From positions 496,001-560,000 of the forward strand of contig NZ_LR593887.1 in NCBI RefSeq assembly GCF_901538355.1: a stretch of DNA of 64,000 bases, in the 5' to 3' direction. Shown here piece after piece: positions 48,832 through 54,289 of this stretch. The DNA is from Tuwongella immobilis (GTDB lineage Bacteria > Planctomycetota > Planctomycetia > Gemmatales > Gemmataceae). A program made the position numbers and the translations under genes. The notes beneath the pieces were generated by a model. That model ran no database searches, was not told the DNA's origin, and worked only from the letters and a program-made list of their open reading frames with translations. Numbering within the stretch: position 1 is the first letter of the stretch; every line of letters begins with the position of its first letter.

Positions 48832-50886
48832 ATGAGCGAATCACAAACCGCACCTGCGGGTTCGGAAGCCTCGGGAAAACATGGGGGACATCATCAGAGC
48901 TTTTGGCTCTGGGTCATGTGCCTCACCGGGGTGGACTACTTCAGCACCTTGGGGTATCAGCCGTCGATCGCCTTCGAAAATGCGGGATTGTTGGCCCCGT
49001 TTGCGACGATCGTGCTGGTGGCGGTAACCCTGTTTGGCGCGTTGCCCATCTATTCGTATGTCGCCTCGCAATCGTTCAGCGGTCAAGGCTCGATTGGCAT
49101 GTTCGCCCGGCTGATGTCCGGGTGGACGGGCAAAATCGTCGTGTTGACGCTGCTGGGATTTGCCGCCACGGATTTCGTCATCACCAAGACGCTTTCCGCT
49201 GCCGACGCCGCCGAGCACTTGCTGCATAACCCCATGTGGCCCTGGGACTTCGATAAATCCTCCATCACCAGCCAGCTCACCCAGCGATTGACGCTGACCA
49301 TGGGGCTGCTGGTGTTTCTGGGCGGGATGTTTCTGCGGGGCTTCCGCGAAGTCATTGGCTTGGCCGTGGTGATTGTCGCCGTTTACCTGACGTTAAACGC
49401 GATTGTCATTGGTGCGGGACTGCTGTATTTGTTCGAACATCCGGACAAGTTCACGCAGTGGATGGACCATATCCGCCAGGGGGCAAGTGGGTGGTATCTG
49501 CACGAAAATCCGTTGGGATCGGGGGCATCCGGATTCCTGGCGATTCTCGCGCTGAGCTTTTTGCTGTTCCCGAAATTGGCGCTGGGCCTCTCCGGATTCG
49601 AGACCGGCGTGGCGGTGATGCCGCTGATTAAGGGAAGCGATGACGACCCGGCGAACAATCCGCAAACGCGCATCCGCAATACCCGCAAGTTGTTGACGTT
49701 GGCGGCGCTGATTATGTCGGTCTATTTGATGGGCTCCTCGATGGTGGTGAGCACGCTGATTCCACCAGAGGAGCTGACCGAACATGCCGCAGTTTCGGCG
49801 GCACCCGGTGGGCCGGGAGCCTCGCCCGAAGTGGCGGAGCCGGTCAAGCCGAAGGCCAAAGATCGGGCGCTGGCGTATCTGGCGCACGGCGAAGCGCCGG
49901 ACAAAATCTCGTCGCTGTTCGGGCCGACCTTCGGGACGATGTACGACTTGGCGACGGTGGTGATTCTCTGGTTTGCCGGTGCCAGCGCCATGGCGGGGCT
50001 GCTGAATCTGGTGCCGCAATATCTGCCGCGATACGGCATGGCCCCGGAATGGGCGAATGCGACCCGCCCGCTGGTGCTGCTGCTCACGGGCATCAATCTG
50101 CTGGTGACGTGGATCTTCAAAGCCGATGTGTCGTCGCAAGGTGGGGCGTATGCCACCGGCGTGTTGGTGCTGATGACCTCCGCGGGGTTTGCGACCGTGC
50201 TGCAATACGGGCGAACCGAAGGGCGGAATCGCTGGCGCTGGTATGGGTATATCTTCATCACGATCGTGTTTTTGTATACCACCGCCGACATTGTGATTAC
50301 CAAGCCGGAAGGCATCCGCATTGCGGCGTTCTTTATCTTCACGATTTTGGCCACATCGCTGATTTCTCGAATCGCGAGAAGTCGAGAATTGCGGTTTGCC
50401 GGGTTCGAGATTACCGATCCGGAATCAAGTCTGCTGTGGGGCACCATTAAAATGCAGGAAAAGACCTGCTTGGTTCCGCACCGCCCCGGTCGCCGGAGTC
50501 TCAAGCAGAAGGCGGAGAGCATTCGCCGCGAGCATCGAATTCGTCGCTACGACGATATTATTCTCGTGGAAGTGCAATTGCAGGATGCCAGCGAATTCGT
50601 GCAAAAGCCGCAATTGGAAATCACGCAGGAAGACGGCCAATTTCTGATGAAAATTAGCGGGGCCGCCAGCATTGCGCACACCCTTGCCGCCGTTGCTTTG
50701 GAAATTTCCAAAGAAGGCAAACCGCCGGAGATTCACTTCGGTTGGACCGAGGAAACTCCCTGGAGTGGCACATTGGGCTTCTTGCTCTTTGGCGAAGGCA
50801 ATGTGCCGTGGATGGTGCGGGATCTGATTCGCCGAGCGCAGCCCGACCCGTCGAAACGTCCGCTGATTATCATTGGAGGAAGCTGA
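48832..50886 (+). CDS. APC-superfamily permease with cytoplasmic tail
   Basis: The 684-residue protein has about 12 membrane helices, beginning WLWVMCLTGVDYFSTLGYQP, then QGSIGMFARLMSGWTGKI. It resembles the amino-acid/polyamine/cation (APC) superfamily. After the helices, about 150 residues are cytoplasmic (ETTCLV-type HRPGRRSLKQKAESIRREHR, then IRRYDDIILVEVQ). The substrate is not clear from the sequence. The following HD-domain gene begins two bases after its stop with GGAGG inside its end, so it probably transports a compound used by that operon, such as a phosphonate or its product; this is inference. Confidence 0.75.
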   Translation: MSESQTAPAGSEASGKHGGHHQSFWLWVMCLTGVDYFSTLGYQPSIAFENAGLLAPFATIVLVAVTLFGALPIYSYVASQSFSGQGSIGMFARLMSGWTGKIVVLTLLGFAATDFVITKTLSAADAAEHLLHNPMWPWDFDKSSITSQLTQRLTLTMGLLVFLGGMFLRGFREVIGLAVVIVAVYLTLNAIVIGAGLLYLFEHPDKFTQWMDHIRQGASGWYLHENPLGSGASGFLAILALSFLLFPKLALGLSGFETGVAVMPLIKGSDDDPANNPQTRIRNTRKLLTLAALIMSVYLMGSSMVVSTLIPPEELTEHAAVSAAPGGPGASPEVAEPVKPKAKDRALAYLAHGEAPDKISSLFGPTFGTMYDLATVVILWFAGASAMAGLLNLVPQYLPRYGMAPEWANATRPLVLLLTGINLLVTWIFKADVSSQGGAYATGVLVLMTSAGFATVLQYGRTEGRNRWRWYGYIFITIVFLYTTADIVITKPEGIRIAAFFIFTILATSLISRIARSRELRFAGFEITDPESSLLWGTIKMQEKTCLVPHRPGRRSLKQKAESIRREHRIRRYDDIILVEVQLQDASEFVQKPQLEITQEDGQFLMKISGAASIAHTLAAVALEISKEGKPPEIHFGWTEETPWSGTLGFLLFGEGNVPWMVRDLIRRAQPDPSKRPLIIIGGS

Positions 50887-50888
50887 CG

Positions 50889-51464
50889 ATGTTGCCGCCC
50901 AACTTGGATACCATCGAGCAACTGTTCACCCAGCATGGCAGTGGTGCCTACCACGGCGAAGCGGTGTCGCAACTGGAGCATGCGCTCCAAGCGGCCTGGG
51001 CGGCCGAGCGGGAAGGGCAATCGGTGGAAGTGGTGGCGGCGGCGTTGCTGCATGATATCGGGCATATGCTCGCGGATGCCGGCGAATTGGCGCATCTGGA
51101 AGGTCGCAATGACTTTCACGAGGAAGCGGGGGCGAATTGGCTGCGGCTGCTGTTTCCGCCCAGTGTGACCGAGCCGGTTCGGCTGCATGTCGAGGCCAAG
51201 CGGTATCTGGTGGCCACCGACCCGGTTTATGCCGCCAAGTTGTCCCCGGCGAGCATTCAATCGTTGGAATTACAAGGCGGCCCGATGTCGGCGGCGGAAT
51301 GCGAAGCCTTTCGGCAAAATCCGCATTTTCAATCGGCAGTTGCACTTCGGCACGGCGATGAGGCGGCGAAGATTCCCGGCTTGCGGACGCCGGATTTCGC
51401 TCATTTTCGCCGATATTTGACCGGTTTGATTCGTCCGCAACCTCCAGCAGGGACGATCGCATGA
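50889..51464 (+). CDS. HD-domain protein of phosphonate operons, PhnZ-like
   Basis: The 191-residue protein matches the HD-domain family found in phosphonate-degradation operons. Its metal ligands appear in LEHALQ (His), ALLHDIGHML (His-Asp), NDFHEEAGANWL and VRLHVEAKRYL. A Tyr-x-x-Glu (YHGE) near residue 21 matches the Tyr/Glu pair that PhnZ, a mixed-valent di-iron oxygenase, uses for substrate. It could therefore cleave a C-P bond oxidatively; this is inference. GGAGG lies eight bases before the ATG. It overlaps phnX in ATGA. Confidence 0.8.
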   Translation: MLPPNLDTIEQLFTQHGSGAYHGEAVSQLEHALQAAWAAEREGQSVEVVAAALLHDIGHMLADAGELAHLEGRNDFHEEAGANWLRLLFPPSVTEPVRLHVEAKRYLVATDPVYAAKLSPASIQSLELQGGPMSAAECEAFRQNPHFQSAVALRHGDEAAKIPGLRTPDFAHFRRYLTGLIRPQPPAGTIA

Positions 51465-52276
51465 GTGAGCCTGTGACGATTCGCGCGGTGATGTTTGACT
51501 GGGCCGGTACCACGGTCGATCACGGCTGCTTTGCCCCGGTGGCCCCGTTTATCGATGCGGTGGCGGAACTGGGCGTCACCATCTCCAGCGCGGAAGCTCG
51601 CAAGCCCATGGGGCTGCACAAACGCGATCATTTGGTGGCGATTTTGAGCGAACCGGAAATTGCCGCTCGCTTTCGGGCCGTCCATCAGCGAGAGTGGAAT
51701 CAGACCGATATCGACCGCATGTTCGAGCGATTTATCACCGCGCAGTTGACCAGCATCCGCGACCATGCCAAGCTGATTCCCGGTGTGCTGGACACGGTGG
51801 CCGAGTTGCGGCGACGCGGTATCGGCATCGGCGGCACCACGGGGTACTTCCGCGAGGCGGCGAAAATCGTCATCGAATTGGCCGCTCAACAAGGCTACTC
51901 GCCGGATTTGTCGCTGACGCCCGAAGATGTCGCCGGTGGCGGCCGCCCCTGGCCGTGGATGATCTATCGCATTATGGAGCATTTGCGCGTTTGTCCGCCA
52001 GCGGCTGTGCTCAAAATTGGCGATACCATCCCCGACATGGAAGAAGGACGCAACGCGGGGGTATGGACATTTGGCGTGCGTCGCACGGGCAGCGAAATCG
52101 GCCTGACCGCCGAGGAACTCGACGCCTTGCCAGTGGACCAACGCCAAGCCAAACTGCGACATGCCGAGACGGTGCTGATGGGGGCCGGTGCCCATGGTGT
52201 GATCGATTCCGTCGCGGAAGTTCCGGCATTAATCGATGCGTTGAATGCGCGATTGGCCCGCGGCGAACGGCCGTAA
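51461..52276 (+). CDS. phnX: Phosphonoacetaldehyde hydrolase
   Basis: The 271-residue HAD-family enzyme splits phosphonoacetaldehyde into acetaldehyde and phosphate. The nucleophile motif is FDWAGTTVDHGC (Asp, with the usual Thr-Thr-Val-Asp), the Schiff-base lysine lies in MGLHKRDHLVAI, and the Mg2+ acidic end in KIGDTIPDMEEGRNAGVW. The start overlaps the HD gene stop (ATGA). Its usual partner, the 2-aminoethylphosphonate transaminase PhnW, is not in the window, so either the HD protein or an unlinked gene supplies the aldehyde. Confidence 0.93.
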   Translation: MSEPVTIRAVMFDWAGTTVDHGCFAPVAPFIDAVAELGVTISSAEARKPMGLHKRDHLVAILSEPEIAARFRAVHQREWNQTDIDRMFERFITAQLTSIRDHAKLIPGVLDTVAELRRRGIGIGGTTGYFREAAKIVIELAAQQGYSPDLSLTPEDVAGGGRPWPWMIYRIMEHLRVCPPAAVLKIGDTIPDMEEGRNAGVWTFGVRRTGSEIGLTAEELDALPVDQRQAKLRHAETVLMGAGAHGVIDSVAEVPALIDALNARLARGERP

Positions 52277-52300
52277 GCCGATCGGTGAAAGAGGTCGCCC

Positions 52301-54289
52301 ATGTCGTTCGGAAAGCCACAATCGCTTCCGTTTGTCAGTCCATTTGGGAAAACTGCGTCGGATCTGCCACCGCCGGCCGCGCCGCGTCCTCGGTTGGGGT
52401 TGGGGGAGTTGATCCGACAATCGGCATTGGCTCCGTTTCGCCTCGCGGGGTTGGCTGCACTGCTGCTGTTGGCCCTGCCGGGGTTGATGAAATTGGTGTC
52501 GCTGCCGATGCAGGCGTCCAGCCAACAGGTGGATGCCGATTTGGTGGCATATCGCTTGTTGGATCGTTCGCGGGTGGTGCCCCCCTTCGTGACCCCGTTG
52601 TGGCCGCTGGGGGATTTCGCCACGTTGCAATCGCAGGTGGTGATGCTGGCCCCGCCGCGCACCCCCGAACAGCGCTTGGGCGATCAATTTCTGGGCCGAC
52701 CCGCCACCGCAGTCTTGGTCGATCGCCAGCAGGAGTCGGTGCCCATGGGAGGCACGTTGCATCGGTTGCGGGATGCCGATGGCAGCGAACGCACAATCAC
52801 CAGTGTGACATTTCATTACAACCCGCGACCGGGTGAGTTGGATCTGGCAGAGAAAAATCTGGCGAAGTTATTTCCCTCGGCGGCATCACAAGCCGCGCTG
52901 CGGGAGTGGGGTGAATCGCTGCATTGGAGTCTATGGCTTCGGCAGCAACCGCTTTCGGTGGTTCCATTTGCGTTGATTCCCGAGCCGACCGAAGCCACCA
53001 AAGCGGAACAGCTTTGGCTGGCCTGGCGGATGTTTGCCGGGGATAGTCCCGATGATGGGGCCGATCTGTTTCGGCTGGGGGAATTGTTCGAAGAGGCATT
53101 TCCCGAGACGCCGGATTATGTGGCGGCTCTGAATTGGGGCAAAGCCTTGTACGAACGCATGGAGGCCGATTTTCAGGCGTATCAAGCCGATCTCAAGGCG
53201 ACGCTTGGGAATGCGGGTTCCGAGAAAACCGAAGCCGCGATCGTGGCCAATTTCAAGCGGGTGCTGCCACCCAATACCACGCTCACGCATGCCTGGCTGG
53301 TCTATCGCTACTACGGACTCACGCCCGCCTCTCGGCAAGTGGCGTTGAAGCGTTGGGAGCGGTGGTTCGCCTCGGATCGGCATGATGCGGTCATGAGTTT
53401 CGGGGCCAAGGTGGCCGAGGAACGCCATGCCGCCCAAGAGCCGCTGCCGCCCATTCCCGAATCGCAACAGTGGGTTTGTGCCATCGAGCGAATTGTTGGG
53501 ACAGATGGGGCCGGGAAGCGGGCCATGCAGGCCGCGACGGATTTGGTCGGGTTCCAAGGATCGCAATTGGTCAACAATGCGCTTCAATGGTCGAATCTTC
53601 AGGTGGGGTTGCAACAATCGCTTCTGGCCCGCGATCGCATGGAATCCGCCCTGGCCGACCCGCTCGATTTATCCCTGCGATATCGGCCGCTGCGCATTTG
53701 GCTGCCCATCGGGTTGGCCGTGCTGATGGCGCTGGCGGTGCAGGGGGTGATTCACTGGCTGCTGGCGATTTGGGTGCTGGATGCATACGGCCAAAGTCGC
53801 TGGTATGCCTATTTGCAAACCCGCGGGGCCGTGCCGATCTGGTTGCTGCTGATTTCGCTGGGGCTGGGCGTGGTGCTGGTGTCGGTCGTGCCGATGGTTT
53901 CGGTGAGCGAAATCGCTGCACTGCAACGCATCGATCCGGGCGATCAATTCGGCCTGGGCGTGCAGGCGCTGGTGATGGGCGTGATGCTCCTGATGACGCT
54001 GCGATTGGGCATGGGCCTGGTGCTGCTGGCGTTCGGCATCGATCTGGAACGATTGTGGCTGGATTGGTTGCTGGCGGTGGGGGTGACAGCCGCGATTCTG
54101 CTGTTCTTCGGCCATCCGATCGCTGCCATTGGCGTGATTGTGCTGGTGGAGCTGCTGCCGGCCGTGGTGCTGTGGTGCTCGCGACGGCATGAATCGCTGG
54201 GGATTGAATCGCATTGGGTTGAATATGCGAACGATCCGCGCCGCTTGGCGGATTCCCCGGAAGCGGTTGCTGCGACGCCGTTTCGATAA
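52301..54289 (+). CDS. Large membrane protein, unknown
   Basis: The 662-residue protein has one N-terminal helix (FRLAGLAALLLLALPGLM), a soluble region of about 400 residues (predicted helical, Trp-rich), and about five C-terminal helices (IWLPIGLAVLMALAVQGVIH; IWLLLISLGLGVVLVSVV; LVMGVMLLMTLRLGMGLVLL; WLLAVGVTAAILLFF; IAAIGVIVLVELLPAVVLW). No domain was recognised. GAGG lies six bases before the ATG. It follows phnX after 24 bases on the same strand, so it may be part of that operon, but nothing in it points to phosphonates. Confidence 0.75.
   Translation: MSFGKPQSLPFVSPFGKTASDLPPPAAPRPRLGLGELIRQSALAPFRLAGLAALLLLALPGLMKLVSLPMQASSQQVDADLVAYRLLDRSRVVPPFVTPLWPLGDFATLQSQVVMLAPPRTPEQRLGDQFLGRPATAVLVDRQQESVPMGGTLHRLRDADGSERTITSVTFHYNPRPGELDLAEKNLAKLFPSAASQAALREWGESLHWSLWLRQQPLSVVPFALIPEPTEATKAEQLWLAWRMFAGDSPDDGADLFRLGELFEEAFPETPDYVAALNWGKALYERMEADFQAYQADLKATLGNAGSEKTEAAIVANFKRVLPPNTTLTHAWLVYRYYGLTPASRQVALKRWERWFASDRHDAVMSFGAKVAEERHAAQEPLPPIPESQQWVCAIERIVGTDGAGKRAMQAATDLVGFQGSQLVNNALQWSNLQVGLQQSLLARDRMESALADPLDLSLRYRPLRIWLPIGLAVLMALAVQGVIHWLLAIWVLDAYGQSRWYAYLQTRGAVPIWLLLISLGLGVVLVSVVPMVSVSEIAALQRIDPGDQFGLGVQALVMGVMLLMTLRLGMGLVLLAFGIDLERLWLDWLLAVGVTAAILLFFGHPIAAIGVIVLVELLPAVVLWCSRRHESLGIESHWVEYANDPRRLADSPEAVAATPFR

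What the first reader, a model, noticed from the sequence alone, without database searches (positions are those of the whole stretch)
48832..54289. Phosphonate operon with PhnX, a PhnZ-like HD protein and an APC permease, but no PhnW
Seen: permease, HD gene and phnX are coupled (2-base gap, then ATGA), and the HD protein keeps HD ligands and a Tyr-x-x-Glu pair like PhnZ. Known: PhnX normally follows the transaminase PhnW; PhnZ normally follows the dioxygenase PhnY. Neither is here. Inference: the HD protein may perform an unknown step feeding PhnX, or two C-P cleavage routes are combined, with a new type of phosphonate transporter.
Basis: partly seen in the sequence, partly recalled or inferred. 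Interest (0 to 1): 0.6.

Follow-up and report, generated by a model that had tools for sequence, protein, structure and literature searches.

The report
Phosphonate-scavenging genes with a distant partner
This bacterium has two different enzymes for pulling phosphorus out of aminophosphonates side by side, and the step that seemed to be missing is most likely done by an oxidase gene two million bases away, a known arrangement that differs here mainly in being split up and in having a potassium-importer-like gene in front.

Summary
In detail: a permease, a TIGR03276 HD oxygenase and phnX are tightly coupled, and no PhnW reaches its threshold in the 6.69 Mb genome. The puzzle largely dissolves outside the window. 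The genome carries a TIGR03364 (HpnW/PbfD-type) FAD oxidase 2.0 Mb away, the kind published as replacing PhnW by oxidising aminoethylphosphonates to phosphonoacetaldehyde. All 6 of 6 sampled phylum genomes with PhnX but no PhnW over cut-off have this oxidase; in the window's own family PhnW is over cut-off in 0 of 102 genomes, while HD, PhnX and oxidase co-occur in 31. HD lies within 3 kb of phnX in 22 of 33 family genomes holding both (19 directly). The HD protein keeps every PhnZ/TmpB active-site residue checked and most likely cleaves an already hydroxylated aminophosphonate such as R-HAEP independently of PhnX. A 2024 Achromobacter paper reports the same HpnW + PhnX + PhnHD set and leaves the PhnHD role open. 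The permease is not a conserved part: none of 80 related loci carries HD, PhnX, oxidase or PhnW in held flanks, and its model is most like potassium importer KimA. Known kind; the open question is the HD substrate. By-catch: DUF5690 relatives in 13 of 59 phosphonate loci.

The parts
48832..50886 (+). APC-superfamily permease, 684 aa, KimA-like fold with a C-terminal cytosolic domain; probably a potassium (or other cation/amino acid) importer, not a conserved part of the phosphonate module
50889..51464 (+). TIGR03276 HD-domain oxygenase (Phn-HD / PhnHD), PhnZ/TmpB relative with intact diiron and YxxE residues
51461..52276 (+). phnX, phosphonoacetaldehyde hydrolase, Asp13 and Lys54 kept; start overlaps the HD stop (ATGA)
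52301..54289 (+). 662-aa membrane protein of unknown family, 24 bases after phnX; not conserved with the module (one relative, 30% identical, on another contig than the phosphonate genes, in the other 101 order genomes)

Best explanation
The HD-phnX pair is part of a planctomycete aminophosphonate-scavenging module whose other enzyme, a TIGR03364 FAD amine oxidase of the PbfD/HpnW type, lies elsewhere in this genome. Route 1 (hydrolytic): the FAD oxidase oxidises 2-aminoethylphosphonate and/or its N-methyl form to phosphonoacetaldehyde, which PhnX cleaves to acetaldehyde and phosphate, so no PhnW is needed. Route 2 (oxidative): the HD enzyme, a mixed-valent diiron oxygenase, cleaves a phosphonate that is already 1-hydroxylated when taken up (most likely R-1-hydroxy-2-aminoethylphosphonate, R-HAEP, giving glycine and phosphate), so no PhnY is needed. 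The permease in front is a KimA-type transporter placed there in this lineage and not a phosphonate-specific part. Shown: gene identities, conserved residues, presence of the FAD gene, absence of PhnW at family threshold, and the co-occurrence and linkage. Inferred: substrates, cofactor state, co-transcription, and permease function.
For: Own genome holds TIGR03364 at C1:2509504-2510598 (-), 428 bits against 285.1. Phylum sample of 246 genomes: 15 have PhnX over cut-off; 9 of these have PhnW over cut-off (5 of the 9 also the FAD oxidase); the 6 without PhnW (G000, G024, G065, G121, G205, G216) all have the FAD oxidase; outside the 15, the oxidase is over cut-off in 2 of 231. Own order, 102 genomes: PhnW 0 at E 1e-55 (that call had no positive control of its own, the same model found 15 of 246), HD+PhnX+FAD in 31; Fisher p 5e-14 (HD/PhnX), 4e-18 (HD/FAD), 7e-16 (PhnX/FAD), not corrected for relatedness; same strand and within 3 kb: HD-phnX in 22 (19 directly), HD-FAD in 20 (all within about 50 bases), FAD-phnX in 16. 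G024 and G216 carry MFS-ADH-HD-FAD-PhnX as one cluster without a PhnW over cut-off in the genome. Published: PbfD enzymes make phosphonoacetaldehyde from N-methyl-AEP and AEP, and some stand in for PhnW; PbfD1 is annotated TIGR03364; PbfD homologues in PVC bacteria are mostly in Planctomycetota (PMC10590968). R-HAEP is not properly processed by PhnW-PhnX, and PhnZ homologues in phnWX/phnWAY clusters never occur with PbfA (PMC8154272). HD-family members also sit in C-P lyase operons with no hydroxylase annotated in the stretch shown (Variovorax SRS16, Nostoc), as expected for an enzyme that works independently of PhnX.
Against: No measured activity of a TIGR03276-class PhnHD appeared in the papers I saw; PMC11203657 calls its role and that of HpnW an open question and asks for caution. 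The YxxE pair does not tell substrates apart: the PhnZ1-type (hydroxymethylphosphonate) rows keep it as well. The tested PbfD1 is poor on plain AEP (130 per M per s), and I did not test whether the own oxidase belongs to the PbfD2 group, which is better on AEP (3400). In 3 of 36 order genomes with PhnX no intact FAD oxidase was found (G257, whose hit has five stops, G271, G300). 4 of 44 order HD genomes have neither PhnX nor FAD at the thresholds used, and 7 have HD and FAD without PhnX. In the own genome the oxidase has no phosphonate gene beside it. PbfA, PbfB, PbfC and TauD-type hydroxylases were not searched for in the own genome.
Confidence: 0.66

Rival explanations
1. The HD enzyme acts in series with the FAD oxidase: the oxidase deaminates HAEP (or a relative) to a 1-hydroxy-phosphonoacetaldehyde and the HD enzyme splits that to an oxidised two-carbon acid and phosphate, while PhnX handles plain phosphonoacetaldehyde.
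For: HD is associated with FAD at least as tightly as with PhnX (38 versus 33 of 44 HD genomes; HD-FAD adjacent in 20). Seven order genomes have HD+FAD without a PhnX at threshold. The TIGR03364 description, as quoted in PMC10590968, suggests HAEP as its substrate; PMC11203657 raises HpnW as a possible substrate source for PhnHD.
Against: In all four of those seven whose FAD locus I viewed (G273, G306, G309, G332) a TIGR03351-type PhnX-like gene lies beside the oxidase (G332 229.8 and G306 225.3 bits, over the 218.9 cut-off; G309 211.2 and a shorter piece in G273 163.5, below it), so a hydrolase is probably still there. Tested PbfD enzymes act on N-methyl-AEP and AEP. HD members also live in C-P lyase operons with no such oxidase annotated in the stretch shown.
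Confidence: 0.1
2. The HD enzyme is a TmpB-like enzyme for N-methylated 1-hydroxy-aminoethylphosphonates (trimethyl or monomethyl), not for R-HAEP itself.
For: TmpB is the closest solved relative (E 1.4e-43), TmpB's best match by bits among the 45 compared HD proteins is this one (154 bits, 47.5%), and the tree pairs them (96/85). The tested partner oxidases prefer N-methyl-AEP.
Against: Score is 191.5 against a TmpB cut-off of 300. TmpB is a very long branch (2.64) in the tree, and the lead over other members is slight (154 versus 150 bits for the next). The six closest family members are 54-57% identical to it.
Confidence: 0.15
3. The permease is the uptake system for the aminophosphonate and belongs functionally to the operon in this lineage.
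For: 2-base gap to the HD gene, same strand; transporters vary between these loci (DUF5690, GlpT-like MFS, TauE/SafE), and APC transporters carry amino compounds (recalled).
Against: 0 of the best 80 homologous permease loci (67 of them with at least 2 kb on both sides) hold HD, PhnX, FAD, PhnW, ADH or the MFS genes; the two sampled planctomycetes with 60-62% relatives (G087, G105) have no HD match and no PhnX over cut-off; best structural match is KimA including its cytosolic domain (Z 41.3, 513 residues).
Confidence: 0.15
4. phnX here is an orphan remnant of a lost PhnW-PhnX operon.
For: No PhnW over cut-off in the genome; the FAD gene is not linked to the pair in this genome.
Against: PhnX and HD keep all residues checked, the tight coupling is kept, no PhnW was found in any of 102 order genomes, and the oxidase is present.
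Confidence: 0.06

Closest known systems
HpnW (TIGR03364) + PhnX + PhnHD (TIGR03276) of Achromobacter insolitus Kg 19 and A. aegrifaciens Kg 16 (PMC11203657, passages and discussion part 2)
   Same: PhnW replaced by an HpnW oxidoreductase, PhnX present, TIGR03276 HD protein in close proximity
   Different: Here the FAD gene is 2.0 Mb away, the HD gene overlaps phnX by four bases, and a KimA-like permease precedes it
PbfD-PhnX pathway (PMC10590968)
   Same: FAD oxidase supplies phosphonoacetaldehyde to PhnX without PhnW; PbfD homologues known in Planctomycetota
   Different: The parts of that paper I saw do not discuss an HD protein in these clusters; here the oxidase is unlinked and its subgroup was not determined
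PhnY*/PhnZ, TmpA/TmpB and Gimesia-type PhnY/PhnZ1 oxidative pathways
   Same: Same HD oxygenase family and the same diiron and YxxE residues
   Different: No hydroxylase partner beside the HD gene; scores below the TmpB and PhnZ1 cut-offs; neighbour is phnX
   Same: HD directly before PhnX; TIGR03364 oxidase present
   Different: Those keep PhnW, a GlpT-like transporter and an alcohol dehydrogenase in the cluster
KimA, KUP-family potassium importer
   Same: Best fold match over transmembrane and cytosolic domains; Asp and Tyr seven residues apart in the first helix, as KimA Asp36/Tyr43
   Different: No sequence-level match; residues not aligned one by one; transport not tested

Membership tests
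TIGR03276 Phn-HD (PhnHD) | score over the curated cut-off of 214.6 bits | tested here: met
   230.4 bits, profile positions 4-177 of 179
HD-domain diiron oxygenases (PhnZ/TmpB type) | H...HD...H...H...D ligands and the YxxE loop | tested here: met
   H31, H55, D56, H77, H100, D157, Y21, E24 in P0001; the ligands in 45 of 45 and Y/E in 44 of 45 aligned rows; motif from PMC8177086 (passages)
HD-domain diiron oxygenases (PhnZ/TmpB type) | oxygen-dependent C-P cleavage of a 1-hydroxyphosphonate | not testable with these tools
   needs an assay
TmpB, (R)-1-hydroxy-2-trimethylaminoethylphosphonate oxygenase (NF049941) | score over the cut-off of 300 bits | tested here: not met
   191.5 bits
PhnZ1 hydroxymethylphosphonate dioxygenase (NF052439) | score over the cut-off of 300 bits | tested here: not met
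   151.6 bits; for the partner methylphosphonate hydroxylase the own PhyH genes score 52.6, 44.1 and no match against a cut-off of 500
PhnX phosphonoacetaldehyde hydrolase (TIGR01422) | score over 220 bits with nucleophile Asp and Schiff-base Lys | tested here: met
   333.4 bits; D13 and K54
PhnW-PhnX pathway | PhnW transaminase in the genome | tested here: not met
   best 120 bits of 400.8; TIGR03301 178.3 of 360.8 for that same gene
PhnY*-PhnZ pathway | hydroxylase gene beside the HD gene | tested here: not met
   neighbours are a permease and phnX; PhyH family matched only at 3 other places of the genome; TauD-type hydroxylases not searched elsewhere
PbfD/HpnW-PhnX pathway | TIGR03364 FAD oxidase in the genome | tested here: met
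   428 bits of 285.1 at C1:2509504-2510598
PbfD/HpnW-PhnX pathway | oxidase activity on AEP or N-methyl-AEP | not testable with these tools
   needs an assay; PbfD subgroup not determined
KimA / KUP potassium transporters | KimA fold including the cytosolic domain | tested here: inconclusive
   KimA is the top match, Z 41.3 over 513 residues, but rmsd 13.8 shows different domain placement; ApcT Z 37.3, rmsd 2.7 on the membrane part; no sequence match

The most novel reading that the evidence does not exclude
TIGR03276 HD enzymes form a substrate class of their own that works in series with the TIGR03364 amine oxidase, the oxidase deaminating a hydroxylated aminophosphonate and the HD enzyme cleaving the resulting hydroxy-aldehyde phosphonate, so that planctomycetes run a third, PhnY- and PhnW-free oxidative route beside PhnX.
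Probability: 0.1. Interest if true: 0.6.

Novelty: new member of a known kind. Interest (0 to 1): 0.3.

Why it matters
It indicates that the absence of PhnW beside phnX in this planctomycete family is a family-wide trait explained by an amine oxidase, and that the partner gene is often unlinked, so single-window or single-operon annotation can call such pathways broken. It also sharpens an acknowledged open question, what PhnHD does beside PhnX, into one assay on one small protein, and points to DUF5690 as a candidate phosphonate transporter family.

Tried and rejected
Rejected: the HD protein as feeder of PhnX (its known chemistry destroys the C-P bond and a likely feeder oxidase is present); the class V aminotransferase at C1:5352039 as PhnW (120 bits of 400.8, better as BhcA or pyridoxamine-pyruvate transaminase); the three own PhyH genes as PhnY; the 662-aa downstream gene as part of the module (besides the own genome one 30% relative in 102 genomes, on contig C75 of G273 whose HD and oxidase are on C316); the TmpB pairing in the tree as evidence of substrate (TmpB branch 2.64).

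Led nowhere or limited: sequence search of the permease in the PDB found nothing, so residue-by-residue comparison with KimA was not possible. The PhnZ structure paper (PMC3986159) is not held. In the counts and Fisher tests the G257 oxidase hit (five stops) was dropped from the FAD set, while incomplete hits (for example G265, G293, G324, G334) were kept; related genomes are not independent, so those p-values are descriptive. Thresholds in the order searches were E 1e-20 (HD), 1e-40 (PhnX, FAD) and 1e-55 (PhnW). In the tree the TmpB and PhnZ rows are the aligned parts only. The match list was cut, but it is sorted and shows all 15 over-cut-off matches. The PhnX-like proteins (L188) and (L187) were given as BLAST-matched parts; one search repeated both with the whole open frame.


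Full report
What is there. The window lies at C1:496001-560000 of a 6.69 Mb single-contig genome, probably of a planctomycete: the nearest named relatives of its permease are Gemmata, Fimbriiglobus and Singulisphaera. At 48832-52276 three genes follow each other on the + strand: a 684-aa permease, two bases, a 191-aa HD protein, and phnX whose ATG overlaps the HD stop as ATGA. A 662-aa membrane protein follows at 52301. The HD protein is TIGR03276 Phn-HD (230.4 bits, cut-off 214.6) and falls short of the TmpB (191.5 of 300) and PhnZ1 (151.6 of 300) models; PhnX is TIGR01422 (333.4 of 220). Nearest solved structures are TmpB (E 1.4e-43) and PhnZ (6e-29) for the HD protein and phosphonoacetaldehyde hydrolase for PhnX. 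The diiron ligands H31, H55, D56, H77, H100 and D157, and also H59, K104, R105, S122 and R154, are the same in all 45 aligned HD rows; the Y21/E24 pair is kept in 44 of 45, the exception being L073. The H...HD...H...H...D and YxxE signature is described in PMC8177086 (passages). PhnX keeps Asp13 and Lys54 (their roles are recalled).

The missing partner. PhnW is absent at family threshold: best hit 120 bits of 400.8, from an aminotransferase that scores better as other enzymes. But the genome has a TIGR03364 FAD oxidase (428 bits of 285.1) at C1:2509504-2510598, minus strand, 2.0 Mb from the window and with no phosphonate gene of the query set beside it. PMC10590968 (abstract and outline, passages, sections 8, 13 and 20) shows that PbfD FAD oxidases, one of which (PbfD1) is annotated TIGR03364, turn N-methyl-AEP and, in the case of PbfD2, also AEP efficiently into phosphonoacetaldehyde, that some replace PhnW in organisms without it, and that within the PVC group they occur mostly in Planctomycetota.

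Phylum sample. In 246 phylum genomes PhnX is over cut-off in 15, HD in 10, PhnW in 15 and the oxidase in 13. Of the 15 PhnX genomes, 9 have PhnW over cut-off (G048, G069, G092, G152, G158, G181, G186, G227, G238), and 5 of these (G048, G069, G181, G227, G238) also the oxidase. The 6 without PhnW (G000, G024, G065, G121, G205, G216) all have the oxidase, unlinked to PhnX in G000 and G205. The other two oxidase genomes are G095 and G172. Of the 10 HD genomes, 9 have PhnX within 1.3 kb on the same strand (7 directly, G024 and G216 with the oxidase between); G172 has the oxidase next to HD and only a PhnX-like gene (TIGR03351 141.7 bits, below cut-off) 3 kb on.

Own order. In 102 genomes of the window's order (the listed rows are all labelled same family) HD is found in 44 (22 over cut-off), PhnX in 36, the oxidase in 42 (41 without the five-stop G257 hit) and PhnW in none; that last search rang nowhere, so its only positive control is the same model's 15 of 246. 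Classes: HD+PhnX+FAD 31, HD+FAD 7, HD only 4, HD+PhnX 2, PhnX+FAD 2, PhnX only 1, FAD only 1, none 54. HD precedes PhnX within 3 kb on the same strand in 22 genomes (19 directly, 3 with the oxidase between); HD is adjacent to FAD in 20; FAD is within 3 kb of PhnX in 16. Fisher p-values are 5e-14, 4e-18 and 7e-16; relatedness is not corrected for. The window's arrangement, HD-phnX together and the oxidase elsewhere, recurs, for example in G251, G254-G256, G270 and G290.

Gene orders. Viewed loci show DUF5690 MFS-ADH-HD-FAD-PhnX (L059, L060; the L059 ADH is TIGR03366, 373.0 of 328.1), the same with a TIGR03351 PhnX-like hydrolase in place of PhnX (L187, L188), FAD-HD-PhnX behind a regulator (for example L184), and FAD-MFS-HD-PhnX-PhnW-ADH in genus g3 (L061, L062, L064-L066). 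Of the 7 HD+FAD genomes without PhnX at threshold, I viewed the oxidase locus of 4; each has a PhnX-like gene next to the oxidase (TIGR03351: G332 229.8 and G306 225.3 over the 218.9 cut-off, G309 211.2 and a shorter piece in G273 163.5 below it). G247, G317 and G334 were not viewed at the oxidase.

What the HD enzyme does. PMC8154272 (passages) reports that R-HAEP is a natural compound that PhnW-PhnX does not process properly, and that PhnZ homologues occur in 15 of 1186 phnWX and 24 of 75 phnWAY clusters but never together with PbfA. That fits an HD enzyme that takes pre-made R-HAEP straight to glycine and phosphate. Twelve of 28 plasmid records with an HD homologue were viewed: two have HD divergent from TIGR03364-phnX (Comamonas; Asticcacaulis, which also has a class V aminotransferase 2.6 kb on), two lie inside C-P lyase operons and one near a phnM-type gene, four are next to a 2-oxoglutarate-type hydroxylase, and three had other or no annotated neighbours (Hymenobacter, Novosphingobium, Rhizobium). 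So the HD family serves several phosphonate systems, which suits an independent side-entry but is also where TmpA/TmpB-type pairs appear. PMC11203657 (passages and discussion part 2) describes the same HpnW + PhnX + PhnHD set in two Achromobacter strains, notes pseudomonads with TIGR03276, PhnW and PhnX but no PhnY*, singles out HAEP among modelled substrates, and states that the roles of HpnW and PhnHD are unresolved. TIGR03276 is named in 1 paper of the library, this one.

The permease. It has no Pfam or NCBIfam family, and two sampled relatives have no Pfam family. In the phylum sample close relatives occur only in G087 and G105 (60-62%; a third match, G081, is weak), which have no HD match and no PhnX over cut-off. 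The AlphaFold2 model (pLDDT 86.2) matches KimA best (Foldseek E 1.4e-14; VIA Z 41.3 over 513 residues with rmsd 13.8), then ApcT (Z 37.3, rmsd 2.7, membrane part only). PMC10284832 (passages) gives KimA's potassium ligands as Tyr43, Asp36, Thr230 and Tyr377; the permease has Asp35 and Tyr42, equally spaced and invariant in the 35-row alignment, but I could not align the two residue by residue. A potassium importer is the likeliest reading; an amino-acid transporter is not excluded.

Verdict. It is a new member of a known kind. What stays open, here as in the 2024 paper, is the substrate of the HD enzyme.

Noticed in passing
L049, L050, L054, L057, L059, L060, L170, L171, L187, L188, L189, L191, L192: An MFS-like transporter of DUF5690 (PF18943, unknown function) sits in or next to phosphonate gene clusters in 13 of 59 phosphonate loci compared by tblastn; Pfam confirms DUF5690 in the 10 tested of the 13 (425-474 bits), L054, L057 and L192 by tblastn only. 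L054 holds an HD-PhyH pair of the methylphosphonate type. A candidate phosphonate transporter; no paper in the library names DUF5690.
   Followed up: partly
L187:8351-9097, L188:7603-8373, L170:4978-5706, L067:10249-10938: TIGR03351-type 'phosphonatase-like' hydrolases (L187 and L188 over the cut-off, L170 and L067 below it) replace PhnX beside or near the FAD oxidase; they keep the Asp and Lys of PhnX but have Ala where PhnX has His57.
   Followed up: partly
L049:6160-7365: In G205 an iron alcohol dehydrogenase directly precedes phnX (TIGR03405 219 bits, below its cut-off 423.7), with no PhnW over cut-off in the genome; it could oxidise hydroxyethylphosphonate to phosphonoacetaldehyde.
   Followed up: no
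L053:8075-9456 and L054:7681-9062: A second HD copy in G181 and G238 lies next to a PhyH-type gene; in G181 the pair is over the cut-offs of hydroxymethylphosphonate dioxygenase PhnZ1 (412.5 of 300) and methylphosphonate hydroxylase (559.8 of 500), so that genome holds two HD oxygenases of different kinds.
   Followed up: partly
L196 and L197: TIGR03276-annotated HD genes inside C-P lyase operons on plasmids of Variovorax sp. SRS16 (after phnCDE) and Nostoc sp. ATCC 53789 (between a phnM-type gene and phnJ).
   Followed up: no
L178:4642-5433, L179:4965-5756, L193:4582-5451: A TauE/SafE transporter gene (PF01925, 150 and 149 bits in L178 and L179; L193 looks alike by its residues only) follows phnX in several family genomes; another candidate transporter for the module.
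   Followed up: no
G257:C1:5471305-5472309: Oxidase match with five in-frame stops in a family genome that still has HD-phnX; a possible decayed copy.
   Followed up: no
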